A DNA stretch of 64,000 nucleotides from Opeltia flavorubescens. Lineage: Eukaryota > Ascomycota > Lecanoromycetes > Teloschistales > Teloschistaceae. This document shows, one piece after another, positions 15,681 through 41,193 of the stretch; position 1 is the stretch's first letter; each line of letters opens with the position of its first letter. The position numbers and the translations under genes are program-made. The notes beneath the pieces are model-generated. The model saw only the letters and a list, made by a program, of their open reading frames with translations, did not search any database and was not told the DNA's origin. The stretch spans positions 930,001 through 994,000 of the forward strand of contig KE546969.1 in assembly GCA_000442125.1 (NCBI GenBank), written 5' to 3'.

Positions 15681-16060
15681 GGTATCGTCTATAGTACAGA
15701 GGAACTAATGCATGCTTTAATTTAGCGCTTTCTAGTACGCTGAGCTCCATCTCTATCTTAACATGTTTCTCTCTGTACGCAGAGAACGCGTTTTTACCTC
15801 GCTAGCGCCGGTAATATCTCTATCTCAAGCTCTCCATAGGATGAATTTTCAAGGCTAGGTTGTATTTTTAGCCCTCTATAGACTCGCCTAACCTAAGAGC
15901 ATTTACCACTATAATTGTCCTACTTAAAAGCCTTCTTTATATCCTGTCTTGCATATTATTTGACGGAATATAAAGAGATAGGGAGGGTAAATAAAACTTA
16001 GCGTACTAGAAAGCGCTAAAGTGTGGCTTGCATTAGTTCCTCTGTACTATAGACGATACC
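15681..16060. mobile_element. MITE, probable hAT-type, with 8-bp target duplication
   Basis: The element is 380 bp and starts GGTATCGTCTATAGTACAGA; its right end is the inverted copy. The first 32 bases of each end are identical, and similarity continues for about 62 bases through TTTAGCGCTTTCTAGTACGCT. It is flanked by a perfect direct repeat CACGATGG (15673-15680 and 16061-16068). It has no coding capacity. An 8-bp duplication is the hAT signature, although the end bases are not the usual CAG type, so the superfamily is inference. It sits just beyond the stop of the permease gene and shows no RIP-like decay, which points to a fairly recent insertion or to a size below the RIP threshold. Confidence 0.85.
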
Positions 16061-20638: not shown

Positions 20639-20783
20639 ATTTAGCGTTTACAAAACCCTAGAGACTGCTTGACATCGAGAACAACAATACTAATACACCT
20701 ATTTTAGTAGCAAAATAATTCTTTTCTCTAGCTACTATAGCTATTTTATTTACTAAATCGCCTATTATAGTAATTTTAAAGCC
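20639..20783 (+). repeat. left terminal inverted repeat of the island
   Basis: Begins ATTTAGCGTTTACAAAACCC. The outermost 82 bases closely match the right end in inverted orientation; similarity then becomes patchy to a shared TAAAGCC. The outer part keeps several CpA dinucleotides (ACAAAACC, GACATCG, AACAACAATAC) that are almost absent further in. Confidence 0.85.
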
Positions 20784-20859
20784 GTATATATATACTATAT
20801 ATAGGATTTCTAGTATAACTTTTTTTAAACTTTATCGTATTATTTAAATATATACTAGT

Positions 20860-22050
20860 ATTAATTTATAACTTTATTAACCTTTATTATAATCTATTTT
20901 TTATATCTATTTTTTATTTAAACTTATACCTATAAAATTTTATTTAAACTTTATCTATAAATCCGTTTTATATATATAAAAAAAATTTAACCGGTAAAAA
21001 AATATTTAGAGGGATTAAACCTCTATTTATTCTTCGGTCTAATCGTTAATTTAAAGGCTAAAAGGAGGTAGAAATATAAATAAAATAATCGTCTATCTAT
21101 TTTTTAAAAATAATACTCTATTTTTTTTTTAAAAGAAGAAAGAAAGCTTTATATATTAAATAATATTTAAAAAATTAGATTATAAGGCTATTATTAAAGA
21201 TAGGTTAGCTATAATATAATAAATAAAAGTATTTAATTTATTTTATAGGCTTTTTTTTAAATTAAATAATAATAATTTTATTATTAATACTCTATTATAG
21301 TTTTAAATTAAATTATAATATTCGAAGTTACTATATAAATTTATATTTATAAAATTTTTTTTAAATTTTATTTATATATTTATACTATATATAAAAAAAA
21401 AACCTAATTAGTAAAAAAATATCGAGAGGGTCGAACCCTCGTTTATATACTTTTTTTTTAGCTAGAACGCCGGTTTAAAGTTTAATTAAAAAAAAAAAAA
21501 AAAATTTAATAATTATCTATTTATTTTTTAATAATAGCGCTTTATTTTTTTTTAAAAAAACTTTATATATTAAATAATACTCGAAAAATTAAACTATATA
21601 ATTATTAATAAAGATATATTAGCTATAATATAATATATAAAAATAATTTTAATTTATACCGCGCTAGATTCGAGCTAAATTATAATAGTATTATTATTAA
21701 TATTTTACTATAGCTTTAAATTAAATTGTAATACTTATATTTATAAAATTATTCTATACCTATAATAGAAATCCGACCGGCTAAAAAGAAATATTTAAAA
21801 GGCTCGAACCTCTATTTATATATACTATAATATATCTAACCTCTATTTTACTAGGGTAGGTTTATTATATAAATTTAAAATATATAGCGGAAGTAGATAT
21901 ATTTAAAGAAATATACTCGCTTTTATATTAAATACTATTTAAAAAGCTAAATTATTAAATTATATAGCTATATTAATAATATAATATTAGCTAGAATATA
22001 ATATATAGATATAAATCTATATTATACCTATTATTTTTATTTATATTACT
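20860..22050. repeat. degraded tandem repeat, about three units of 365-415 bp
   Basis: Three copies of a block share a marker (GGTAAAAAAATAT-like, then a GAGGG...CCTC hairpin, then TTTAT) near 20990, 21405 and 21770. A second marker, TTTATATATTAAATAATAC-like followed by TAGCTATAATATAAT, follows each at similar spacing. Copies have diverged by C-to-T/G-to-A type change. On the minus strand the hairpin of unit 2 reads GAGGGTTCGACCCTC, like a tRNA T-arm. Confidence 0.6.
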
Positions 22051-22240
22051 ATTATTAATTATATTTTATAATAGTTTTAAACTAAATTATACTTTTAATA
22101 ATAACTATATCGCGAAATATATAAATCTATTTTAAGCAATTAATATATAATAATAACGATTAGAATAATATAATAGCCTTTATAATTAAATAATAAAAGA
22201 TATATATATTAATATATAAAGCCCGGGTTTAATTTCTAGT

Positions 22241-22310
22241 AGATATTATTATATTAAATATTACTCGAAATAATTCGAGTAATATTTAATACTAGCGATA
22301 ATAATATTAT
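22241..22310. repeat. palindrome inside the island
   Basis: ATTAAATATTACTCGAA (22253-22269) is followed after four bases by its exact inverse TTCGAGTAATATTTAAT, and weaker symmetry extends outward on both sides. It may be the junction of two nested inverted elements; no more can be said. Confidence 0.5.
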
Positions 22311-25300
22311 CCTTTTTTTTTTATTCCGCTCCTTTTTTTAAAATATTATAATAGAAAACAACTATAATAGTTTAAAGAATAATAATTTAAAACTAGTATA
22401 CGCGATTATAATAATTTAAAAAATAGTAATTTAAAGCTAGTATATATATAAATATAAATACTGAATAGTAGTAATATTTTTATAAAATAGTTAATATACT
22501 TTACTAATATATAAATAAAAGGCTAAATATTACCGTATAAAATATTATATAAAGTCGAGTAAATAAAAAAAATATATCTAAATATTATAAAATTTTATAT
22601 AATAGAGCTAAAAATAAATAATAGGTAGTAAAAGGTAGAGTAGTAAATAATAATAGATAGATTATTAAATAAAATCTAAAGGCCCTATAAAAAAGCAGGA
22701 GAACTCCGGATATTAGATTTAAATAAAAAGAAATTTACTTTAAATAAATAATCTAATTAGTTTAAACTTTATTTTAATTACTAGTTTTAAAAAATTTCTA
22801 TTTATATATAAATAAGAAATAGTATAATAGTAAAAAAAGATATTAAAAAAAAAATTTAGTACTAAATAATACTAAAATTTTTACTTATTTTTATATAGGG
22901 TATAGTTCGGCTAATATTTAATTAAAATATATAATTTAAAATATATTTAAATATTTAAATTTAATATTATAAAATTTATAAATAATATTATTTATTTAAA
23001 ATATGGTTTATAAGTTAAAATAATTATATATTATAAAACTTTTAAAAAAATCTAAAAATTTCTACTATTTATTTAACTCGAGTACTTCTATAAAACCTTA
23101 TATATATTAAATTAAAGCGCGTTTTTATAATAGAATTCTATATTATATATAAATAATTATAGTTTATAATTTATAAAACTTATAAAATTAATTAAATATT
23201 AAAAAATAAATTAAAAATTATCTAATTTAATTTAATATTAATATATTAGTAATTTTTAAAATAAAAATTTAAAAATATAACTATAAAGTTTTATAGTTTT
23301 TAGTACTATTTTTTTTTTTTACTATATTTTTTCTCCTTTTATTTTTTTTATTTCTATATTTATAACTATTAATAAACTATTTTTAAATTAATTTTAAAGC
23401 GTTTTTTTATTTAATTATAAAATTATTTAATCTCTTTTATTATAATTTATTAAATTTAAAACTTTATAAATATTATAAACTCTACCTCCGCGGTCTCTAG
23501 TATTACCTCTAGTTTATCTACTAAAAGTACTCGTTTATAAACGCCTATTAAAAAAACTCGATTTTTAAAATCGGTTAATAAATTTAATAATATAATTATT
23601 AAAATTAATAATACTAATATTAATATTAGAATAAAAAGGAAAAAAAGTTTTAAAAATATATATTATTTAATCTTTTTTACTTTAATTAAATAGTAATAAA
23701 GGTTTAATTATATAATACCTTATATTATAAAAGCTAAAGTTTAAATTTATAAAAAAGAGGTTAATTATTAGTTAAAGATATAAATATTATACGCTATTTA
23801 AATATAAATAAAGAAATAATAAAAAGTTAAATAAAATATATCGATAAAAGTAAAAGGTAAATAATAAACTACTACTATAAATAATAGTAGGTAAATAATA
23901 ATAAATAAAATAGTAGAAAAAACTCGAGTTACTATAAAACGGAATACAAAACTTATCGCTTTTTAGAATTAAAAAATCGCTATTTACTATAAAAGAGAAA
24001 AAAAAAAACGCCGCTATAAATAAAAAAAAAAAGAACGCCGTTATAAATAAAAAGAAGAAAAATATCGCTATCGCGAAAATAAAAAAGAAAAAAAAGCTTA
24101 TATAATAGTAAAGTAGAATAAAAAGGAAAAAAATTTAAAAATAAAAAAAGAATATTATAAAAAAATTCGCCGGCTTTTTAAATTAAAGCGTTTTTTTATT
24201 AATTAATCTATTTTAAATAAAAGTAATATTTTAAATAAAAGTAAAATTTTAGCTAATTATAAAAGAATAATTAAAGTCGAAAACCGCGAAGATAAAATAT
24301 TAAATTAGTAGTAGAACGGATTTTATTTATTTAATATTAAGCTAGTTTTTAAAATTAAATCTAGACTAGGCTATAAATTATAGTAGATAAATAAAATTAA
24401 TAAAAAAAAATAAAACTATAATTAATTCGACGTTAATATATTTAAAAAAGAATTTATTAAAATATTAAAAAATAAAAGGTTTAATAATAAATATAAGTTT
24501 ATAATTTAAATTAAATTATAATACTTTAAATTTATACGCTAACGCGTTAATTTAGGCCCTATATTTAATTAAAGTAACTAGTATCGAAAAGTTAATATAA
24601 TATTAAATAAATAATAATTAAAATATATTAAATATACTATAAATATTATCGTTAAATACTTTAGTAAAAAAATTAAAATAGTTATTTCCTAGAATTCTAT
24701 TATAATACCTATTAATATAAATAAAATTCTATTTATACTAATTTAATAAAAGATTTATACTATTTAATTAAAAAAATAATAGGCCGAATAATATAATTAA
24801 AACGAAGTTATAAGTATTTATATATAAAAATTATTTAATTAATAAAGTTATATTAATAATTATTATAAAAACTATTTAAAAGGCTTTTATTTTATTATAT
24901 ATAATAATTAATACTATAGCCTCGATATTATTTAGAGGGATTAATAGGTTAAAACTATTACGCGGAAAAAAGCTAGTATTTTAATTAAATTACTTTTATA
25001 TCCCTTTTATAAATATTTTTATATAAAATAAAACTTTATAGATATTATATATAAAATACCTTTTATTAAAGCTTTAAAGGATATAAAAATAAAAAAATAT
25101 AAAATAAAAAAATAAGAATAAAAAAAATAAATAAAATATATAATAAATTATTAAATATAATAAACTAAACTTTAACTAGTATAAAGCTTTAGTAATTAAT
25201 TAAAACTTTTTTATTAATAGTAGTAGTAAATATTCTAAGTTATATATTCTATACTATCGTTATATATATCGAACCTACCTTTATTTATATATTTATCTCT

Positions 25301-26262
25301 CCCGATAGCGATAGAATTAGTATTTTTTATAATTTATTCTTTATCTTTATCTTTAGCTCCGTCGGCGGAGTAATCTAAAAAATTAAACCTGATTATACTA
25401 AAGAATAAATAAGTATTAAATAATTTTTAAATATAAAAAAAAAAAAATATAATAAATAAAAGTATTAAACTATATTTTAATAAAATAAAAAATATTATTA
25501 ATAATTAAATATAGATTATAAAAGATTTAAAATAAATATTAAATATATTATATAAATTTTATAGTATAGTAATAAAAATAGACTTATTTAATAAATTAAT
25601 ATAAAGTTTTAAAATAGATATTTATTATTTTAAAAATATATAGTAAATAAAATTTAGGCCAGCGTATTAAATATATAAAATACGCTATAATAGTAGATTT
25701 TTTATATTTAAAAAATAGATAGAGAATCTTTATATTAATTAGGCTATTATTTTATATTTTTTTAGCTATATTCTATTATTATAATTTATAATTCCGTTTA
25801 AAATACTTTAAAATCGCTTTTAAATTTATACCCGCTAGTATTATAATAAAAATATATTATTATATATTTATTATACTCGTTTTATTTAATTATATATTTT
25901 AAAAATTTATTAAAGTTATTTTAAAAACAAGGTTATATATATTTAAAGTATTTTTTTATTTAGACCTTTAATATATTAAAAATAAATTTAATAAAATTAT
26001 AATCCAGTAAATAAAAAAATAAAAATTAAATTAAATAATTTTTTACTTTAATAGTTTTATAAACGCGATAATTATAATAAAAACTAAAATTATTAAAATA
26101 AACGATATTATATTTTTTTAATTAGGCGTTATAATAAAATAATAATTAATCTTAAATTTAAACTATAAATTCGTTAGTATTATAGAAACTTTTTTTAATA
26201 TCGATATACGGTAGATATTTATTAATAATATAAATAGGTAAAATATTTTATATATTACCCTA

Positions 26263-26475
26263 ATTTATATTTAGACTAGTTAATCGGTCGAGTTTTCTAA
26301 ATAAAATCTAAACCCGAAACCGACCCGAATCGAGTTAAAAATTTATAAAACCCGACCCGAATCGGGTTAAGTTCTAATCAGATCAGGTTTTTAGCGGGTT
26401 AGATTCTAGTTAGGTTAAATTTTTAACGAATTAATTTTAAATCGAGTTAAACTCGATTAACTCGCTAAAAATTTA
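26263..26475. repeat. CCCGA-rich stretch, hAT-like subterminal motif cluster (left)
   Basis: Several copies of ACCCGA/TCGGGTT-type words (AAACCCGAAACCGACCCGAA, AAAACCCGACCCGAATCGGG) stand out from the AT background. They survive because CpC and CpG are poor RIP targets. Similar arrays of CCCGA words lie just inside the ends of many hAT transposons. Its edge CTAGTTA...GTCGAGTT resembles the inverted edge of the cluster at 40.2-40.4 kb. Confidence 0.4.
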
Positions 26476-29400
26476 TTTAAATTTAATAATATAACCTATA
26501 ATATAAGTCCTATAATACTAGTTTTTTTTACTATAATTAAAATTATATTAATAACTATAATTATTACCTTTATATTATTTTATTATATTATTTTATTATA
26601 TTACTACTATATTAAAATAGAATTATATCTAATAATAGTACTATTAATCTATTATTATAGAATTAACCAGGTTTTTTTTATAAAAGGAACGATACGAATA
26701 AATCTAATAAAAAATTAATACTAAATTCGCTAATTAATAATATTTATTTAAACTAATCTATAAATTAGTTTTTAAATTAAAATACTAATATATTTATAAT
26801 ATTAATATATTTATTTTAGGAGAAATAAGAGTAAATTTAAATAAAAATAAAAAAAATTTAACTTTAATATCTAACTTTAATTTTTTAAATTAAAAGCGAA
26901 TATATTTAATAAAGTAGTAATACTTATAAAATTTTTAAAATTTAATAGTTAATTACTTTTATAATAGTTTAAATCGAAAATACTTTTAATAAATTAATAT
27001 ATCTCTTATAAATATAAAAAGGAGATAGTTTAAGTAAAAATCGTTCGAAATTCTAATCCGAATTTAAGTAGGCTACTTCGATTTTTAATAATAAACCTAT
27101 AATTATCTATAAAAATTATTTTAAAAATTTTAATTATTTTACTATTTTTAATTTATTAACTACTTTAATTATAAATAAATATTTAATTTCTATTTTTTAT
27201 TAGAGATATAAACGACCGTATTTCTAATTAAATATTAAAATAAATCTTAAATATATAAATATACTAAATAATATTTAAAAATAATATATTATTAATATAT
27301 TATTTTAAAAGAAAAATTATATAAATAATAACGGGAATTTTAATTAAAAGATTTAGAATCGCTAATTATATAAAATCTTTATATAACTCGATCTCCTTCT
27401 ATAAATTATTAATAATCCTATTTTTTAAAATTTTTTTTAAATACTCTATTTTAATATATAACTCGCTAGTTAAATAATTTTAACTAATTAGATTAAAAAA
27501 GATTATATTAATATCTATAAAAAAATTTATAATAAACTATATAATATAAATCGAATTTTTTTTATAATAAATACTTAGTCTAGCCTTTAAAGGATTTTAT
27601 ATTTAGAAATACTAATATATTAAATTAATAACTAATATTAGTTTTAAAAACGGTTATTTAAATTTATATTATTAAATACTAATTATTCTAATAAAGTATA
27701 ATATAATAAAATATTAATTCTTTTTAATTACTATAATATTAAACAAAAACTTTTTAGTATTATTATTAATAATATAAATTCTAATAATACTTTAAAAATA
27801 GAATTAAAAGGTAAACTCTCCCGATTTAATTAAAAATAGGAAAAAACTAAAAATTTTTTACTATATTTAGCCTATATTATTAATCTTATAATCTAGAATT
27901 TTATTATAATAATCGAATTTTAAATAATAAATAATATTTTAAACTAGAATTTAAAGGATAAATATTTTAGTAATTTTAATATAAAATTATTAAATATAGT
28001 TAAAAAGATAATATAATAAAATGATATATTAAAAAAAATTAAATTATTAATAATAGTTTAGGTTTACGCGCTTACTATTTATATAAATATATTTTTTTAG
28101 CGTAAATTATATTTTAAAGAACTTTAATTAAAAAAAAATTAAAATTATAAATTAAAAGGTTTATTTTAAAATATTTATATCTAATAAAATTTAATATATT
28201 TAATAATCTATTAAATATATTAATTATATAAAGTTTTTACTATTTATATTAATAAATAAAAGAGTTCAGATAATAAATTTAATAAAATCCGTTTTAATAT
28301 TAATAATTAGTAATCTTTTTTATTTTTTAATACTATATTTTATTTTTTCTATAATTTTATATTTATTATTTTATAGACTACTAATACAAGTATTTATTTA
28401 GCGTTCTATATTTTTATTAAAATATATAATTATTTTAAAATAATTAAAGAAGCTTTTAAAATATTATATTATTTTATAAAAGCTACTATAATAAAAGCCT
28501 ATTAAATAGCAATCTAAAAATTTAAAAAGTATTATTTATATATAAAAAGAAAAGGCGGATTAATATATAATCTAGTAAATATTTTAAATTCGATAATAAA
28601 ATTAAATTTATATTATAATTAAAATATTAAAAAAGTACTTAAATTTAATCGATAAAATTTTATAGATTATTATTAAAAGGAGTTTCTAAAGTATTTTAAT
28701 AAAAATTATAATAATTCTTCTAATACTTTAATATAAAATAATTAATCTATAAAGGTTTAATAGGTAATATATATAGGTAATATATCTATACTTTACTAAT
28801 TCTATATAGCTATTTATACTAGCTTTAATTAGTATTCTTTAACCACTTGTACGTATCTAAAGAAACCGTATAAAAACGGAGTAATACTTTAATATAAATA
28901 TTACTAAATATATACTAAACTAGTAATTTTAAAGAAATAATACTTTTAATTTTTTTAAATTAATTTAAATAATTTAAAATATTTTTTTTTATTTAATATC
29001 TTCTATTAAAATCGAGCGGGTATTTAATTTTATAAAAAAAATCTATTAATAGAACCGAATTTAATTAAATCTATTATACGTAGAATAAATTATAATAATT
29101 AAATATAATAATTATACTATAAATCTAGAATTAAAAAAAGCGATTAACGAATTATAGAATTTACTTTATTAATAAAAAAAAATAAATAAGTTATATAAAA
29201 ATCCTTTTTATAATATTAAACTAGGAGATATTATTATTAAAGTACGCTAGTTAATAAACTATAGTAATTAATTTTTCTATATCCCTTTAAAAAATTTTAT
29301 AAAGAAGTAATATAATATTATTCTTTAAATTTCGAAATATAAATTTTATATCTTCTTTCCTTTTATTCTATTTTTTTTTTTTAATTAAAATAGCTATTTA

Positions 29401-31289
29401 ATTCGTTTTATTAAATATAAAATAAATACTATATTCTTCTATTATATTATAACCTACTTAATATAAATAACTATTAAATTAATAACTATTTATTTTTAAT
29501 TCTATATTATTAGTAATATATATAAATAATATATTTATATTTAAATACTAATACTATATAAATTCCGGTACTTTTTTAAAGCGCTAGTAAAGCCGAGATT
29601 TAAATTTTAATCACCGTTTTTTTTTTAAAAAGTTATATTTCTAGTATAAACTCCCGGATAAAATAATTAAATAGTATTTTAAATATTAAATTCTTTATAG
29701 ATTTTTAATATTAATAAATTTCTTTTAAAACTATACGTTCTAGTTTAATTTAATATTTTATCTAATAAAATATTAATACTTTATACTTTAATATATTACT
29801 TTTCTATATTATCTTTTTTATATTTAACGGTTTAAAGCCTTTAAAAAGAAAATTTAAAAATTAGGTTACTAAAGTATTATTAATATACTAAATTTATAGG
29901 GTATTTAAATTTTATATATTATTTTTTATAGTAGATATTATTATTAGCTACTATAGATAATAGTTATAGAAATAACTAAATTAAAAAAAAATAATAAATT
30001 ATAAATTTTATATACGGTTCTATAAGTAGTTTAAACTATTTTAAAATTTAATTTTAATAATATCGATTTAAATTCTACTAATAATTCGTTTAATATATAT
30101 AGCCTTTTATAATATTATTATTCTATTATCCTTTTATTTTAAAAAATATAGGTTTAAAGTTTAAAAGTCTATATATAATTTTATAATTAATACGCTTCTA
30201 TTCACGGAGTAACTAGTAATATAATAATTATATAGACTTTTATATATAAATTATAGCCGATTACTAAACCGAGTTTTATATTATCGCTAATCTTAAAATT
30301 ATAAATTAATAGAAAAACTCTATAAAACCGCGTTTATTAGAAAAATTAGCTCGGTTTTAAATTAAAAAAAAATAAAATTATTTAAAGAATATATAATAAT
30401 ATATTTAAATAATATAATTATTTATTATATTAAATAGATTTTTAATATCTATTTATAAAAATTTACTATAGTAAAAAGCAGTTATAGAAAATTATAATAT
30501 AGACGCTGCCTTTATATTATAACTAGTAGTAATATAAACTATTAATTTCTTTTAAATATTATTTACTAATTCTTCTATTAATTATATAAAAAAAGTAATT
30601 AGAACTCTAAATAACTTTATTAAACGGGTATTAAAACCTTTCTATTATTAATAGATAAACCGAGTAAATAATATAAAATTACTAGATTAAACGGCTCTAA
30701 TTTTTTATAAATTTAAATAACTAGGATTATAATTTTAATTATAAAGCGTATTATATATTACGCGAATATCTATAAAGCTATTTTAAAAAATATAAAGTTA
30801 GATTTTATTTAATAGAAGGATAAAATAAATATATTAAATATTTTAAATAAATTAGGCTAGATTAAACTCCTAGTTTATTTATTTATTAATAATTATTTAG
30901 ATATTAAAAAGCGAGATAATATTAATAACCGAGTTCTAATAATCTATATATTATACTATCCCGCCGAAGCTAACGTACCCGGAATATAAATATAAAAATA
31001 ATATAATAAAAATTTTAGTAATTATATCCTTTTAACTAGTATATTTAATATATATTACTATAATATATTATTTAAAAAGAATATAAAAGTTATAAATATA
31101 CTATTAATATATATTATTTAATTATTTAAAATTATAGTTCTAATAAAAATTAATCTATTTTTTTTATATATTATAATTTTAATATTAAATTTCTTTTAAA
31201 TAATTTTAATTAAAATTAAAATATTTTAAAAAATTATATTTTATTTTCGCCGTCGGATTTTAAAGATAAATACACTAGATTCCTACTAA

Positions 31290-31368
31290 AATTCGAATCT
31301 AGGACCTCTAGAATATAATAGAAATACCTGAGAATTATAACTACTAAATTATAAAAAATATTAATAAA
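31290..31368 (-). other. tRNA-like relic, probably from a tRNA-derived SINE
   Basis: On the minus strand, a D-arm-like segment (TTTAGTAGTTATAATTCTC) is followed about 30 bases later by a T-arm-like hairpin CTAGATTCGAATTTTAG with a TTCGAAT loop. The order and spacing match the two internal Pol III boxes of a tRNA, with changes of RIP type. No intact anticodon stem or acceptor stem is evident, so it is not a functional tRNA gene. Confidence 0.35.
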
Positions 31369-34300
31369 ATTTATTAAATTAATATAATATAATAGTTTTT
31401 TATATAAAAATAAAATTTAAATTTTATAATTTACGAGTTATATATTATATTATTTATACTAATTTTAATAATAGTTAATAGAATTTATTTAGAATATCTA
31501 ATAATAAAATTATTTATTAAATATTTAGGAACTAATCGCGTATTTAATATACCCTCGGCTCTAATTATTAAAGTAAGCGCTTTAGCGCTAAAAGCCCTTA
31601 GCTCTATAAAGCTAGCTAAATTAATATTCTATAAATAAACCTATCTTATTAATTAAATTTACTATTTCAATTAAATTTTTACTATTATATAAAAGATTTT
31701 ACTTAATCTTTTTTATTATAATAACTTTTTTTATAAAACTAAAACTATATTCTACTAACTTAAAAACTATAATTAGTAGAAGATAAAAGTTAAAATAGAA
31801 TAAAAATAAAGTTAAACTTTATATATAATAAAAAGTCGACTATATAATAATATCTAAAAAGTTTAAAAAATTAAAAAAGATAAATAAATAGAAATAATCT
31901 ATAGATAAAAAAGTATTAAAAGTATTAATTCGAATAAAAATAAAAGATAAAAGGATAGCGAATAGTAAATATAGTAATATATCCGGGTAATATAACTACT
32001 AACTTTATTAATTATTACCTAGCGTTAGTATTTAAATAAAAGTTAAGGGCTAAAATATTAGTAAAAAAAAATAAAAAGATAGATATTATTATAATTACTT
32101 TTAAAAAAACCTTTAAGAAGATAATATATATAAGAAATATAATATATAATAATTATTTTTTTTAAATCTAATATTTATCTAATTTATATCTAGATAATTA
32201 GATTTACCTAAAATTTTAAAATATATAACCTCTATTATTAATATTATTATTTAATAGATTATCTACTATATTAATACCGCGAAATTTTAAAAAATAAGCT
32301 TAAAAAACTTTATAAATAAATTAAAAATATTTAAAAATATAATTAAAAGTTTTATAAATGCTATTAATAAAAAAATAAATCGCTTTATTATAAATAAAAT
32401 CTAAAAAAATTACTAAAAAAAATTAATAAAAAAATAAATAAAGTTCTAAAAATTTATATAAAAAAAAATAATATAATATTTATTAAAAAAGATAATTCCT
32501 ATAAGAAGGATAAAAACTAAAAAAAAACGAGTAATAAAGAGATTAGTAAAGAAAAAAAGACTAGTAAAAAAAAAAAAATTAGTAAAAAAAAAGATAATAA
32601 AAAAAAGGAAAATAATATAAAAAAAGAATAGTTTTATAAATATAATAGATATAAATAATATATTACTTTTATATATTATTTATTAAAAGGTCGATTTAAA
32701 TATTAATATTTATTATTTTAATAAGTATAATTTTTAATTAATTTAATCGATAATTTTAAACTATATAATTAAATAGTATAATCTAATATTAATATTTCTA
32801 GTTATTATAAATATATTTTAATACCTATTATTACCTATCGCTTTTTTAAAATTTTTAATTCTAGAATACTACTAGTATAATATTTAAATTATTTATAGCT
32901 ATTTATAAATATAGTTTTTTTATTAAACTATTTTTAATAATAATTAAAAATTCTTTATTAATTATTAAAAAACTAAATACTTTTATTTTTATAGTTTTTC
33001 TAGTATATATTATCCTTTTTATCTCTATTTTCCAATTATCGAATATATTATCCACCTTTTTATTATTTACGCCCGTATAGAAAAAGATCCGTTATATAAT
33101 TAAAAATATAATAGGTATAGTATTTTTATTAATTTTCTTCTTCGTCGATTAAATCGAATCCTATATTAGTATTAGAATAAAATTATACTATAAATTTGAA
33201 ATATATTATCTATTTATATTACTATTAGGTTAGCTTCGGCTAGCTAATATTTCTAAATATTATTAGTCAGGCTTTTATAGCTATTATTAAATAATTAATA
33301 TAAATTTAAAAAATCCTAATATATAAAAAAAATAATAGTCGAAAAAGTAATAAAAAATTTATCTATTAATCCTTAATTTTTATAGTCTACTTTCTCGCGT
33401 AACTAATTTTTAAAAAGATATACTAATTAGAAGTTAGTATAATTTATACTTATATTATCTAATTATATTATTATACTCGCTATTTATTATTTTATTATTA
33501 TTATAATTAATTTATATTAATTCGATTAATAGGTCCGGATTCTTTATAAATTTATAATTTTTAGTTTCTTTAATTTTAAATATCGCTTTATATCGGGCTA
33601 TTATATTTATAATATAGCGATTAAAGAAAATTTAATACTAAAAATATTAAATATTATATAGTTTATAATTTATAATAAATATTAATATTAAATCTAGTAT
33701 AATTAAATAATAGCTTAATTCGATAATTTTATTAGAATTAAATAAAAAATACTATCGAAATTATTATCTCTAATAAAAATTATATAACCTTATTTAAAAT
33801 TCTATAGATATATTAATCTATAAAAAATTAAAGTAAAATTAAATATTATTAATTTTCTATAATAAACTTATTTTATCTTTATTAAATTTTATTTTTTAAA
33901 ATTTTAAACTAATATAGTTTTTAAAAGGATTAGAGGCTATTAATAATAATAGTTAAAAAAATAAATTAATATATTTTACCGTCTATTTACTATTTTAAAT
34001 AATAATTTTATTATATAATTAAAAGCGAATAATAAATTAAAAAAGACCGCGGCTTTTAAAATTACTAAAAAAGGAAAATTTAATAATATAATAAATATAA
34101 TCTAAACTTTTAATATTATTATAAATAAAAATAGAATTAAATATATAATTTATAATAATATACTCTAATAATATAAATTTTAACTTTATTAATTATTTAC
34201 CAGTCTCGAACTTCGAGAATATCCTATAAGCTAAAGCTAAAAAAGAAAATTATAATTTTATAATAGGGATTTAGGTATTAAACCTATAAGGTAATTATAA

Positions 34301-37300
34301 TAAATATAAAAATATAAATAATACGTTCGATATCTAAATAAATATTTCTTTCTAATTTTAATTTTATATTTTTTTTAAAACCTAATTATTAAAGTTATTA
34401 TTAATAAAATTATTTTTTAATCCAATATTTAAAATCTAATATTTAAAAAAATAATTAATTATTATAAAAATTAGATTAAGCTTTTATATAATTTTATTAA
34501 TAATAAAATAAATAATAATAGTTTAATTATATATAAAGAATTATTTATTTTATTTTTTTATTAAAAATATATAATTAAATAACTAAATAATTAAATAACT
34601 AGAAACGAGCTTAAAAAAAGGAGTTAATAGTAAAAATAGAAATAATTTAATCGATAATATTTTTAAAATATTTTAAATCTAAATATATACTATTAAATAA
34701 AAAAAATATCCCTAAATTATATTTTTAAAAGATATTATATTAGGAATAATTAATTAAACAATTTTTTAATACTATACTTATTTATATAATATATAACTAT
34801 TATATACTATATAAAAAGGTAATATAAAAAGGTAATATATTATTATTTATCTAGCTATAAAAACCGTATTTTTAATTTTATCCACTTTTATTAAATTCCT
34901 AATTAACCTTATAATAATTAATACCCGAATAATTATTTATTAAAACAACCTAGATTATATATAAATAAAGAGATAAACTCTATATTTTTCTTCTAAATAG
35001 TAATACGCTTAGTATAAATAGCTGTAAACCTAATATCTATTAATAATTAGTAACTCCGCTTTAATAATATAAAGCAGTAATATATTTACTATTAAAAAAA
35101 GCGATAATATAGGCCTCCGTTACTTTTTAAAGTATATATAAAGCCTATAATTAAATATAAAGCCCTATATTAGAATAATAATCTAGGATAATCTCTTTAA
35201 TAAATTATATAAAGATTATTTTAAGGATAAAAAACTTTATTATATATTATAATTTATAAATTTTTTAAAAAGTAACTATACCTAGTTTAAAATAAAAGCG
35301 ATATTTAAATTAATAAAATATTAGTCTAATATAATAAATTTAATCGATTATTATATTTATTTTAATAATACTATTTTAATTAAGCTTTATACTAGGAAAA
35401 GATTTCCTTTTATAACTAGAATATTTTTAAAATACTAGAATCTATAAATACTTTATTTATTAAAATATATAACTTTAATATATTACCTTTAATTAGCGCT
35501 ATAATTCAAATAATAGTATACTATATACTATATAGTATACTTCTAGATAATAAATACTCTATATAGAAATAATATAGTAGAAAATTAGTAGTAATAGTAT
35601 TAAAGTTAAAAAATAATAAATAATTATAATATTTTAATCTTATATATTAAAGCTATAATTATTTAAAATTTTATTTATATAATAAATTTTATATATAATA
35701 ACTCTATAAATATTAAATTTATTATCTAAAATTTTTTAACTATATATTATAATTCTACTATTAATAAAGCTTTTATAAATTAAAAGCTATAAATATATAA
35801 TAAAAAGGTAAAAATTAAAATCCCTCTAATAAATATAAATATTTTCTATAAATAATATAAAAAGATAATATAACTATAGTAATACTATTTAATAGTATAT
35901 TCTACTTATTACTATTTTTAAAGCTTTTAGTATAGAGAACCTTTATAATAAATTATATATTTAAATAATTATCTTTTATATAAAAGTATATTTTACCTAT
36001 TTTATTATTAATTACAACTAACCTTTTATTATAAATAATAGTAAAATAATCTAGAATAATTACTTTAATACTATTCCTACTATAATATAATTCTTTTATT
36101 TTATCCTTTTATTAATAATAAGCTTCATCCGAACCGGATATCGAATCGTTATTTTTTATATAATATAGGATTTACTAGATAATTAGATCTATAATTAGCT
36201 ATTCGATCTATATAAAAATAATTAGTATATATAATATTCGCTATAATATAGCTATAGAATTTATATTTATAGAGTCGAATATCTATTATCGATTTTTATA
36301 TTCTATATTTACTTTTATCCGTAAAATTAATTTAAGTATATAATTAAAAAATTATTAGTATATAAAAAATCTATATTATTTAAATATATTACTATAGAAT
36401 CCTCGGTATTTATAATCTTTATTTACTTTCTATTATTTATTCTTTTTTAACGCCTCCGGGTTTACTAATAATTTCTACTAGTTAATACTATATAATTACG
36501 CTATAATATTATATTATACTTAAACGTCGAGTAAAAACTTTTTATAAATATTATATCTAATTTTATACTATTCTTTTATATATTTAATTAACTTTTTTAA
36601 TTATAACTCGCTTTCTAATTATAACTCGCTCGTTCTCGATATAATAATTAATAATTATAATAGAATTATACCAGCGTTTAAATAATAAATATCTAAAATA
36701 GATCGATATTATCTATAAAATAAAAAATAACTCCGCTATAAATTAATTTTATATAAATTAAACTACCTATAAAATTTTAAATAAATTATTATCTATAAAA
36801 CTATTCTATTTTTAATAATTATTTTAATATTTATTATTCTTATAATTTAATATATATAAAATATAGTATTAATTATTAAAGGTAATATACTTTATTAATA
36901 TATTATTAACGATTTTAATATTAATCTATCAAAATAATTATTAAAAAAGCTATATATAAAGAAAATAATATATTAAATAATTATAATATAAATAAAATTA
37001 TTAAAATAATATATTTAAGTAATATATTCGAATATAATATATTTAATAATATTTAAATAAAGCGTCTAATTAAACTAGAAAAAATAATATTTTATAAAAT
37101 CATTTACTACTAGAAATTAACTGATTTTATTATTTTTAAAACTCCGTTCGCGCGATTAATATAAAAACTAATAGCGGATTACTCGAATAAAAATAAATAA
37201 ATTTAATTTATAGCGTTAACTATATTATAAAAAGCCGCTGAAATATATATATATAATTTATTCTATAGTAAATATATTATAGCTATATATTATTAAAGTT

Positions 37301-40189
37301 AAAATATTAAAGTTCTTTTAAATATTTAACTAGTAGCGATTTATAAAAAGCGAATAACTATTTAAAGAAAAAATATAAAATTTATTTTTAAAATTATAAT
37401 AAATTTTAATATATTATTTAAATAAATAGGCTTTAACTTTAATAAAATATTAAATAAATAATATTAAACGGGTTTTTAATTTAAATAAAAAAAAAAGTTT
37501 AAATCGCGTATTTTTTATAATTAAAGGAATTTAATCGTTTTATTTTATTTCTATATTTTATTATTAAAAAAGAACTAAAAGTTATTTAAAGCCTTTAAAC
37601 TTATAATAAACTAGATTTTTTTTTTAGACTCTACTAATCTCTCCTTATAAAAAAAAACTATAATATTTATAAAATTTATTCAAACTTTAAAAGCTTTTAA
37701 ATTATTTAATAGTAGTAATTTATAAAATTAAAAATCGAATAATAAAAATACTAAAATAATATTTAAAAGTAATATATTCTAAATTTTTAAACTATTTTAC
37801 TTATTATTATTTTTATTATATAAATCGCTTTTTAAAAATTCCGTATTTCCTTGTATAATATACCTTTTAATAACTTTTTTTATTTTTTTATTAATTTTTT
37901 TAATTATTTTATTATTATCGCTAGCGTATAATAAAAAGATTTNCTTATTTTTTATATTTATAACGGTCCTAAACTCTTTTATAAACTTATTCTACTTTTT
38001 TTCTAAATTCTAGACGCCGGTAAATTTTAATTTATTAAGCCCCGTTTTATAAATAACACGCTATATAATATATTAAACTATTAGTATTATATATTTTAAT
38101 ATTATTACTAACGCGCCTTCTATTATTTTAAATATTTTATATTATTTAAAATTAGCGGCCGTATTTATTATATTACTAAATTATATTATTAATAAAATTA
38201 GTATTATTATAATAGACTTTTCTTTAATTAATAATACTATTTTTTCCGCTTGAGTTATAAACGAGCTTAATCCTTTTAATTTTATAATTTATACTATTTT
38301 ATTTTATAATATAACGCTTAAAAATAATTAATAGAAATATAAATTATATTATTTTAATATATTATTATATAAATTATTTATAATTCGAAAATTATTTTTT
38401 TAAATCCAGCAATTCTATTTAAATACTTTTTTTTCTTTTTTATCGGCTATTTAATAGGTAATAGTTTTTTTAAATTTTTATACCGCTTTAAATTAGGTTT
38501 AGAAGTTTATATTCGTTTATATATATAATTTCTTTTTCTCTAATATTATATTATTAAATTATTATATATTATATATTAATAATAAATTAATAAAGCGAGA
38601 TATAGTAATATATAATAAAATATAGTTAAATATAATAAAGTAGAATTTTATATATAATAATATATATAATTTAATATTAAAGTAAAAACTTTAAATATAA
38701 TTTAGAATTATTTATTAAAGGTTAAAATTTAATTATAAAATTCTATTTTAACTAATTAACTAATTCTAGTATTTTTTTTATTTTATATATTATAGAATTA
38801 TACTATTTAATAGCTTTAACGTACTTTTATTTAATTAAAGTATTTATATACTCTATATCTATTATATTTATCTTTACTAGTTATTCCTTTACCTTATTTA
38901 TTAATTAGATTACCGTATATTTTTATTAATAATAATAAAAAATATATTTATATAATTATTAAATATTAAAATATAAAAAAAATATACCGGTAATATATTA
39001 TAATAATATATTTAAAATATTATTATCTACTAATTTTAAATAGATTCGAATAATAAAATATATATAATTAAAAATAATAATTTACTAGTTTATTTAAATC
39101 TATAAAAAAGTAATTACCTATTAAATAATAAAAAGCTATTTTTTTTATATTCGCGTAAAAGTAATTATATCTCTAAAAATACCCTAAACTATATATTATA
39201 TAATAATAGTCGGGTTTTAAACTATAAAAATTTATTGAATATAAATTTATTTAATAATAAAAATACTTTTAATCAGCGAAGTTAATATATTAAAAAAAAA
39301 AAACCGCTTTAAACTATTTTAAATTATAAATATTTAAAGTAAAAAGGATATATAAAATAAAAAACGTAATAAAAAAATAATTACTCGCGGTATAAAAATC
39401 GATTATAGAAAAAGAGTTTATTATAATAAAAAAGTCGGTTAAAAAAAAGTTAATAAAATAATATAAAATAATAATACTTTATTTATATAATAAAATAAAC
39501 TAATATTTATAATAGCGTTATTTTAAACTAAGTACTATTATTTTATAAAAAATTTATCGGTATTAAAAAACTATTAAATTATTACTTCTAAAAATATTAT
39601 TTAGCCGTTTAGTACGGGAATTACTTTTTAATATATAAAATTATAGAATTAATAATTATAAAAATTCTATAATTAATCGTATTTAATTAAATATATTAAA
39701 TATATTATATAAAATTATAAAAGCTTATATAATAGTATTTTTTAAAAATAAATATATTATTTCTATATATTACTAGTACTATAATTTTAATATATAATAG
39801 ATATCTAATTTACTATAATATACGCGAAATATATAATTATTAAAAATAAAAATATATAATTTATTTTTAATTTTATAAATTAATTCGGTATTATTATTAA
39901 TTAAATGTAATATATATTTAAATTAAATAGAGAGCCTAAATATTTAAAGTTTATTATTATTTAATAATATTATATATTTATTATAATTATAAAAAAAAAA
40001 TAAATATATTTCTTTTTAATATTAATAATAAAATTTATCTAAAGCCTAGACTATTTAATTTTTTTTATAAAAACTTTATCTATTAATAAATATAATTAAA
40101 CTAAAACTAGAAATAATATAATTTAAAAATAATAATAGAGTAAAAGATTTATTTAAATCCTAAAGCTTAAACTTTTACTAGTATAATTT

Positions 40190-40425
40190 ATAAAAAAGTC
40201 GGGTTAAATTAGATTATCAGATCAGGTTATTAATCTAAATTTTATTATCCGACCTAATTTTTAATTTAAGAATTAGGACCTAAAATCAATCTAACTCGCT
40301 AGTAACTCGATCTGAATTCAACCCGACTTACTAGTAACCCGACCCGAAACCGACTACTAAACTAAAAACTTAAATTCGATTCGACCCGATTTAACCCGAC
40401 CTAACCAGTTTATTTATATTATTTT
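40190..40425. repeat. CCCGA-rich stretch, hAT-like subterminal motif cluster (right)
   Basis: Contains ACCCGACTTACTAG, TAACCCGACCCGAAACCGAC and GACCCGATTTAACCCGACC. Read inverted, its outer edge (CTGGTTAGGTCGGGTT) resembles the edge at 26.27 kb (CTAGTTAATCGGTCGAGTT). The two could be the ends of one nested element or two separate copies. Confidence 0.4.
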
Positions 40426-41041
40426 ACTATTAAAGTTTATATTTAATAGATTTATAAACTATATAATACTAACCGTTTTATTATTTAAAAATTAATTTAT
40501 TAATAAAAACTAGCTAATTAATAGTAATATTAAATATAAATTCCTATTATTCTATATATAATAGTAGACTAAAAGAATTAATACGCTAGTTTTTATATTT
40601 ATTTATTTTTTTAGCTTTTAAAATATAGTAAATTATAGATATACTATAGCTAATATTCTATTTTTATTTAATAAAGGTAATTATTTTATTTAGATATACC
40701 TATAAATAACGCTAGTAAAATTTAACTAGGCTTTTTTTCGCCGTAACGTATAGTTTTTTAAACCGGTTATTCTTTTTAGATTATAATAGTAGAAGGGTTC
40801 TATATATTTATAAACGGTACTTATATTTATATATAATAAATCTATCTAGTTTTAATTAGATAGCGGCGGTATTAAATCGCTAGTAAGTATATAAAAGACC
40901 TTTAGTTTTAGAGCGCCGGAGGGTATTAATAATATAATAAAATATTAAAGGCGGTATTAAAAAAAAAAAGTAGGATAATATAGATAGTAAGTACTATAAA
41001 AAAACTTAATTACTAGGATTAATTAAAATATCTATTTATAA

Positions 41042-41193
41042 GGCTTTATAGTTATTATAATAGATAATAAACGATTTAATAAAGTAATTAGCTATAATAG
41101 CCGGAGAAATAAATTATTTTACTACCAAAATAGGTGTATTAGTATTGTTGTTCTCGATACTAAGCAGTCTCTAGGGTTTTGTAAACGCTAAAT
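41042..41193 (-). repeat. right terminal inverted repeat of the island
   Basis: Inverted counterpart of the left repeat; reads ATTTAGCGTTTACAAAACCC on the minus strand from 41193. Its few differences from the left copy are mostly C/T or G/A within CpA/TpG steps, as expected of light RIP. Confidence 0.85.

What the first reader, a model, noticed from the sequence alone, without database searches (positions are those of the whole stretch)
20639..41193. A whole AT-rich isochore is framed by terminal inverted repeats
The compositional edges coincide with matching inverted ends (77 of 82 positions alike), so the 20.55-kb AT island looks like one large inserted element rather than an accumulation of small repeats. 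Large TIR-bearing elements of this size are rarely described in Pezizomycotina, and TIRs of this length are not a feature of Starship elements. The family is unreadable after RIP.
Basis: partly seen in the sequence, partly recalled or inferred. Interest (0 to 1): 0.82.

Follow-up and report, generated by a model that had tools for sequence, protein, structure and literature searches.

The report
Mutated giant transposon carrying histone genes
A 20.5-kb stretch of ruined, AT-rich fungal DNA looks like a large jumping gene that carried its own transposase and four histone H3-like genes, and those histone genes had been kept under selection as proteins before the fungus mutated the element to death.

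Summary
The inverted ends are real: 77 of 82 letters, arms extending to 130 nt, all five outer differences transitions. The 14% GC interior has nearly lost CpA/TpG: saturated RIP (repeat-induced point mutation). It holds one hAT transposase (Pfam PF05699, E=0.005, below its gathering score; RIP-tolerant score 116.8, best of 20 shuffled proteins 59.7), four histone H3-like genes (profile against PDB H3, E=8.1e-10) with a 53-54-nt intron at the same codon, and a six-copy family of unknown function. Transversions among the four H3-like genes fall 87/49/183 on codon positions 1/2/3, so they diverged under purifying selection that RIP cannot imitate. H3-carrying hAT elements are known (Pyrenophora, Pseudocercospora: 5.6 and 9.5-9.9 kb, 1-2 H3 copies). 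This is a larger variant: 20.5 kb, ~130-bp TIRs, four intron-bearing paralogues. The 8-bp target duplication expected of hAT is absent, so a simple intact insertion is not shown. No host or sister genome was available, so copy number and empty site are untested.

The parts
20639..20768 (+). left terminal inverted repeat (tip ATTTAGCG; hAT-like YARNG would start at 20642, TAGCG)
   Evidence: YARNG consensus recalled
41064..41193 (-). right terminal inverted repeat
20712..41125 (.). RIP-saturated interior: CpA 45 and TpG 18 occurrences in 19.5 kb (21000-40500)
20911..21765 (+). tandem pair of ~415-bp subterminal repeats (20911-21352 / 21328-21765), 91-95% alike in purine/pyrimidine in the two stretches shown
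27402..29178 (+). RIP-killed hAT transposase: DUF659-type region ending near 27924, middle region near 28287-28590, C-terminal dimerisation domain 28939-29120
   Evidence: recalled reference strings; Pfam PF05699 E=0.005 and 0.0092 in two overlapping pieces, four other pieces without hit
29385..29767 (-). H3-like gene A, intron 29486-29538 (53 nt)
34936..35306 (-). H3-like gene B, intron 35037-35089 (53 nt, GTAAAT...TTACTAAT...AATAG)
37042..37422 (+). H3-like gene C, intron 37268-37321 (54 nt, 3' site reads AA)
39516..39901 (+). H3-like gene D, intron 39748-39800 (53 nt), longest loop 1
30272..30511 (+). family-2 copy a (core)
31850..32089 (+). family-2 copy b (core)
33356..33595 (-). family-2 copy c (core)
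34031..34270 (+). family-2 copy d (core)
36277..36516 (-). family-2 copy e (core)
38250..38489 (-). family-2 copy f (core)
26316..26456 (.). CpG-rich patch ((ACCCG)n-like), inverted relative of 40249-40384
40249..40384 (.). CpG-rich patch, inverted relative of 26316-26456

Best explanation
The island is one dead hAT-type DNA transposon of about 20.5 kb. Shown: matching ~130-bp inverted ends at the compositional edges; one transposase with DUF659-type and C-terminal dimerisation regions on the + strand; four H3-like genes (two per strand), each with a 53-54-nt intron at the same codon; a six-copy second family; RIP over essentially the whole unit; purifying selection among the H3-like genes recorded in transversions. 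Inferred: the transposase moved the element by cut and paste through the long ends; the element became repeated in the genome and was therefore hit by RIP, followed or joined by further C-to-T decay (GC 14%, where CpA-only saturation of the flanks would leave 35%). Most likely role of the cargo (inferred, not shown): the H3-like proteins entered nucleosomes with host histones, on the element or genome-wide, and affected silencing of the element.
For: TIRs and edges. RIP-tolerant scores: DUF659 string 116.8 (20 shuffled proteins at most 59.7, 10 Markov islands at most 48.4); C-terminal string 82.1 (46.3 and 45.3); H3 120.5 (61.2 and 46.6). hAT pieces are colinear on one strand: 27924, 28590, 29113. 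Pfam PF05699 E=0.005. H3: exon-1 profile against PDB E=8.1e-10, the 60 shown of 175 sequences are H3 or H3/CENP-A chimeras; exon-2 profile, the 60 shown of 121 are H3 at the expected place, best E 0.15; PF00125 in 3 of 4 members; four loci at 105-124, the next separate peak 53. Splicing by the shared intron joins L-F-x-D/N to the TNLCAIH region in phase 1 in 4 of 4. Codon-position transversions 87/49/183 in 492 codon pairs; 0 of 20,000 within-codon permutations reached the third-position excess.
Against: No 8-bp target duplication: GGTGCATT against AATCCGAA for a TAGCG tip, none for an ATTTAGCG tip either (by eye). Both Pfam hits for hAT lie below the gathering score (16.2 and 17.0 against 21.4 bits); the DUF659 and middle pieces gave no Pfam hit, and the 18 whole-frame pieces gave no hAT hit. 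One of two DUF659 sub-strings (part B) was at noise: 40.9, shuffled at most 40.5, reversed 42.3. The hAT strings are recalled from memory. Two H3-like genes on each strand and 20.5 kb being about twice the 9.5-9.9 kb of the Pseudocercospora element fit a composite. Copy number in the genome is untested.
Confidence: 0.75

Rival explanations
1. Composite: two or more hAT-related elements (nested, or joined by recombination in inverted orientation), so the outer TIRs come from different insertions.
For: No target duplication. H3-like genes A and B are on - and C and D on +. Length is about twice the 9.5-9.9 kb, 1-2-H3 element of P. fijiensis (PMC6710886).
Against: Only one transposase above noise. 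No internal tip copy. The two halves are not copies of each other: all six H3 pairs are about equally far apart (28-32 third-position transversions per 82 codons), whereas the TIRs agree at 126 of 130 in purine/pyrimidine.
Confidence: 0.17
2. The H3-like genes are passively captured fragments without function in the element, as PMC6710886 argues for Pseudocercospora.
For: All four copies are RIP-killed; the N-terminal tail is not recognisable (12 frame tests: 11 below and 1, an out-of-frame one, above the best of 30 shuffled tails). Published copies are truncated in most cases.
Against: Transversions avoid codon positions 1 and 2 in each of the six pairs: constraint on the protein lasted while third positions neared saturation (0.37 of a 0.5 maximum). 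Four paralogues keep one common intron, so they are not independent intronless retrocopies.
Confidence: 0.25
3. An ordinary AT isochore built from many nested retroelements, with the inverted tips by coincidence.
For: Such islands are common in RIP-active fungi (established knowledge). A recalled Tad-type LINE string scored 59.0 at 27586, above its five shuffles (at most 51.6), inside the hAT region.
Against: Gypsy RT, gypsy integrase and copia RT strings did not exceed their four shuffles; no LTR-like pair at near-identity in purine/pyrimidine; TIRs far above controls.
Confidence: 0.03
4. A Starship or a Polinton-like element.
For: Size alone.
Against: Captain string 45.4 (shuffled at most 48.4) and PolB string 43.2 (50.9) at noise; a hAT transposase is present instead.
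Confidence: 0.01

Closest known systems
H3L-carrying hAT element of Pyrenophora tritici-repentis (PMC3538342; passages and section 20 part 1 read)
   Same: hAT transposase, extra ORFs between TIRs, a histone H3-like protein that is neither canonical H3 nor CenH3, and a second ('central') ORF of unknown function.
   Different: 5.6 kb (and a 2.3-kb form), one H3L per element, near-identical copies, little RIP. Here 20.5 kb, four diverged H3-like genes, saturated RIP, ~130-bp TIRs. Whether family 2 is related to the central ORF could not be tested.
H3-carrying hAT family of Pseudocercospora fijiensis, Cercospora, Sphaerulina (PMC6710886; abstract, Results, Discussion part 1 and passages read)
   Same: RIP-killed hAT elements in AT-rich blocks with H3-like sequences, mostly without a recognisable N-terminal part.
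   Different: 9.5-9.9 kb, 18-20-bp TIRs, 8-bp duplication, 1-2 H3-like copies described as intronless retrocopies (a 16-aa insertion in the second copy). Here four copies share a 53-54-nt intron, TIRs ~130 bp, no duplication, GC 14%.
ToxhAT (14 kb; PMC6737239 and PMC12506042, search listings only)
   Same: Large cargo-carrying hAT-type element in a Pezizomycotina fungus.
   Different: Different cargo; details not read.

Membership tests
hAT superfamily | hAT transposase with C-terminal dimerisation region (PF05699) | tested here: met
   E=0.005 and 0.0092 (below gathering score) in 2 of 6 pieces; RIP-tolerant 82.1 against at most 46.3
hAT superfamily | DUF659/RNase-H-type upstream region in colinear order | tested here: met
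   with recalled strings; sub-string part B at noise; no Pfam hit for these pieces
hAT superfamily | TIRs with YARNG tip (recalled) | tested here: inconclusive
   TAGCG fits, but lies 3 bases inside the matched end ATTTAGCG; arms ~130 bp
hAT superfamily | 8-bp target site duplication | tested here: not met
   GGTGCATT against AATCCGAA (flanks); so filed as 'carries a hAT transposase, works like a hAT', not as a proven intact hAT insertion
H3-carrying hAT elements (Ptr / Mycosphaerellaceae) | hAT transposase plus H3-like gene between TIRs | tested here: met
H3-carrying hAT elements (Ptr / Mycosphaerellaceae) | sequence relatedness to the published elements | not testable with these tools
   those genomes and supplements were not available
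histone H3 (not H4, H2A, H2B, CENP-A) | H3 alphaN helix and histone fold | tested here: met
   H4/H2A/H2B at noise; spliced copies score higher for H3 than human CENP-A in 4 of 4 and than Cse4 in 3 of 4 (C: Cse4 147.9, H3 142.7)
histone H3 | canonical N-terminal tail | tested here: inconclusive
   not recognisable; no positive control; an upstream exon is possible
Starship | captain tyrosine recombinase (DUF3435) | tested here: not met
   recalled string 45.4, shuffled up to 48.4
Swi3/Csm3 (for family 2) | Swi3 domain | tested here: inconclusive
   profile E=0.086, but RIP-tolerant scores not above controls and Pfam gave only unrelated weak hits

The most novel reading that the evidence does not exclude
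A lineage of large hAT transposons that permanently encodes several histone H3 variants of its own, kept as functional genes by purifying selection and duplicated within the element, possibly tail-poor variants that shield element chromatin from silencing: selfish DNA that brings its own nucleosome parts rather than a passive capture of a host gene.
Probability: 0.35. Interest if true: 0.85.

Novelty: new variant of a known kind. Interest (0 to 1): 0.62.

Why it matters
The published view of H3 in fungal hAT elements is of transduplicated host gene copies that drift or are RIP-inactivated. Codon-position transversions, which RIP cannot make, show that four H3-like genes in this element diverged under protein-level selection. 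That makes 'does a transposon use its own histone?' a testable question. The purine/pyrimidine and RIP-tolerant reading also recovered genes from a 14% GC island that Pfam read almost nothing from, so it could be applied to other 'unreadable' RIP islands.

Tried and rejected
LTR pair: the four-copy repeat first looked like LTRs of nested retroelements; rejected because the copies differ at about 20% by transversions concentrated on one codon position and match H3. Gapped purine/pyrimidine alignment of the copies was too permissive and was not used. H4/H2A/H2B: at noise. Other transposon classes: gypsy RT and integrase, copia RT, pogo, MULE, captain and PolB at or below the best of four shuffles; helicase string equal (52.0); Tc1 51.1 above shuffles (at most 49.3) but below reversed (56.9); Ulp1 45.4 slightly above shuffles (41.7) and reversed (40.9), not pursued. 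LINE string 59.0 above five shuffles (at most 51.6), piggyBac, PIF and YR not above. Family 2: a first alignment in the wrong frame gave nothing; in the better frame a weak Csm3 hit (E=0.086) that did not hold against controls, Pfam only Citrate_ly_lig (1 of 6, E=0.031) and DCD_N (1 of 6, E=0.12). Family-2 transversions 121/95/156 by codon position in 495 codon pairs, no permutation test. RNY periodicity: 17.8% of island windows above the 95% control level, 5.2% above the 99% level (flanks 14.6%): suggestive only. Rfam and tRNA scans of the window: nothing. Tip in viral contigs and genome contigs: 0 matches. Paper searches: (no paper held all terms); in their listings I saw no fungal hAT of this size with four H3-like genes, which is not proof of absence.
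Full report
Observation. The inverted ends are present at the stated coordinates (77 of 82 letters) and extend to 130 nt. In the purine/pyrimidine alphabet the arms agree at 82 of 82 and 126 of 130, so all five outer differences are transitions. Four shuffled islands gave best segments of 55.2-73.2, the arm 119.6. The interior (21000-40500) has GC about 0.14, CpA observed/expected 0.07 and TpG 0.03. CpA-only saturation of the flanks would leave 35% GC, not 14%; CpC, CpG and CpT are also reduced, to 0.19, 0.33 and 0.62 of the flank density, so either further deamination followed RIP or the element began AT-rich. Ordinary CpA/TpG survives in the outer 73 and 68 bp of the two arms.

Reading a RIP-saturated island. 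RIP makes only transitions, so purine/pyrimidine identity is preserved. A self-comparison in that alphabet found, besides the TIRs, a tandem 415-bp pair, two related CpG-rich patches, and a family of four copies near 29.3-29.8, 34.8-35.3, 37.0-37.4 and 39.5-39.9 kb. The differences between these copies concentrate on one codon position. Pfam gave PF00125 Histone for one of them (E 0.076 and 0.014 in long pieces; 2.4e-4 when cropped, 3 of 4 members).

Four H3-like genes. A profile of the four first exons matches PDB histone H3 at E=8.1e-10; the best 60 of 175 sequences were shown and are H3 or H3/CENP-A chimeras. Copy D alone gives E=9.4e-4. The second exons give H3 at residues ~110-126 in the 60 shown of 121, best E 0.15. 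A RIP-tolerant six-frame score (each A may have been A or G, each T may have been T or C) finds the same four loci at 105-124; the next peaks are 63.8, which lies within copy D, and 52.9; the two Markov islands of that call reach 45.8 and 50.9, and H4, H2A and H2B stay at control level. The H3 reference reaches 120.5 against at most 61.2 for 20 shuffled proteins and 46.6 for ten Markov islands. Between the second helix and the CAIHAKR segment each copy has an insert of 53, 53, 54 and 53 nt (A, B, C, D), phase 1, starting GTAAAT (B, C) or ATAAAT (A, D), with TTACTAAT or TTACTAGT inside A, B and D, and ending in TAG in A, B, D and AA in C. Removing it restores the H3 frame in all four (the borders were set by eye). 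I take it for an intron. Loop 1 is longer than in canonical H3 and varies between copies. The N-terminal tail was not recognisable.

Selection. Over 82 aligned codons (loop 1 excluded; blocks chosen on the protein alignment) the six pairs show transversions 87, 49 and 183 at codon positions 1, 2 and 3 of 492 codon pairs; 27, 15 and 52 of 82 columns vary; 0 of 20,000 within-codon permutations reached the third-position excess. RIP cannot cause this, and decay after inactivation would dilute it. The four genes therefore diverged as proteins under constraint, with third positions near saturation.

Transposase. Recalled hAT strings find one gene on the + strand: DUF659-type region 116.8 (ending 27924), middle region 67.1 and 87.3 (28287, 28590), C-terminus 82.1 (29113); controls were at most 59.7 (DUF659) and 46.3 (C-terminus) for 20 shuffled proteins. 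One sub-string (part B, 40.9) was at noise. Pfam independently names PF05699 Dimer_Tnp_hAT at E=0.005 and 0.0092 in two overlapping pieces, below the gathering score, and nothing for the other four pieces. No second transposase was seen. Other transposon strings were at or near noise; a LINE string, an Ulp1 string and a Tc1 string slightly exceeded their shuffles and I do not build on them.

Second family. Six copies (three per strand) share Y-[NS]-N-I-x-x-[stop]-Y-x4-Y-[stop] in one frame, the stops being RIP products of Q or W most probably (inference). Two H3/family-2 pairs stand head to head at similar spacing, 625-646 bp between H3 start and the family-2 tyrosine (A with a, C with e), and a third at about 1.15 kb (D with f), computed from the coordinates. 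The identity is open: a Csm3/Swi3 hit at E=0.086 did not survive controls. [quoted passage not shown]

Target site. If the hAT tip is TAGCG (20642), the flanking octamers are GGTGCATT and AATCCGAA; if it is ATTTAGCG they are GTTGGTGC and CCGAATTA. Neither is a duplication (flanks printed, compared by eye). Recombination between copies, or a composite origin, would explain this; I cannot decide without a genome. The flanks carry a fungal-rhodopsin-type fragment on the left and an amino-acid permease on the right; MutS-type, BolA and ATG9 genes lie further out.

Comparison. H3-carrying hAT elements are known in P. tritici-repentis and in Mycosphaerellaceae. The present element fits that kind by content and differs by size, TIR length, four H3 paralogues, a shared intron, extreme decay and evidence of selection. 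Hence 'new variant of a known kind'. The host species was not identified. Mechanism: transposition by the hAT transposase and inactivation by RIP are well supported by anatomy; the chromatin role of the H3-like proteins is inference.

Noticed in passing
15681-16060: 380-bp MITE-like element outside the island: 65-nt inverted arms at 91% and a perfect 8-bp direct repeat CACGATGG at both edges; tip GGTATCG; GC-normal and so apparently untouched by RIP.
   Followed up: partly
26316-26456 and 40249-40384: CpG-rich patches ((ACCCG)n-like) of about 30-42% GC inside the 14% GC island, inverted relatives of each other.
   Followed up: partly
20911-21765: Tandem pair of ~415-bp repeats just inside the left TIR, 91-95% alike in purine/pyrimidine in the two stretches shown, much closer than the H3 paralogues are to each other.
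   Followed up: partly
20639-20711 and 41126-41193: The outer ~70 bp of both TIRs keep normal CpA/TpG while the inner part of the same repeat is RIP-depleted: a RIP edge falling at nearly the same distance on both sides.
   Followed up: no
30272-38489 (six cores): Second multi-copy protein family without convincing identity (Csm3/Swi3-like lead at E=0.086), partly head to head with the H3-like genes.
   Followed up: partly
PMC6710886: The 16-aa insertion reported in the second P. fijiensis H3-like copy (48 nt) is close in length to the 53-54-nt intron seen here and may be the same feature; its position is not given in the text I read.
   Followed up: no
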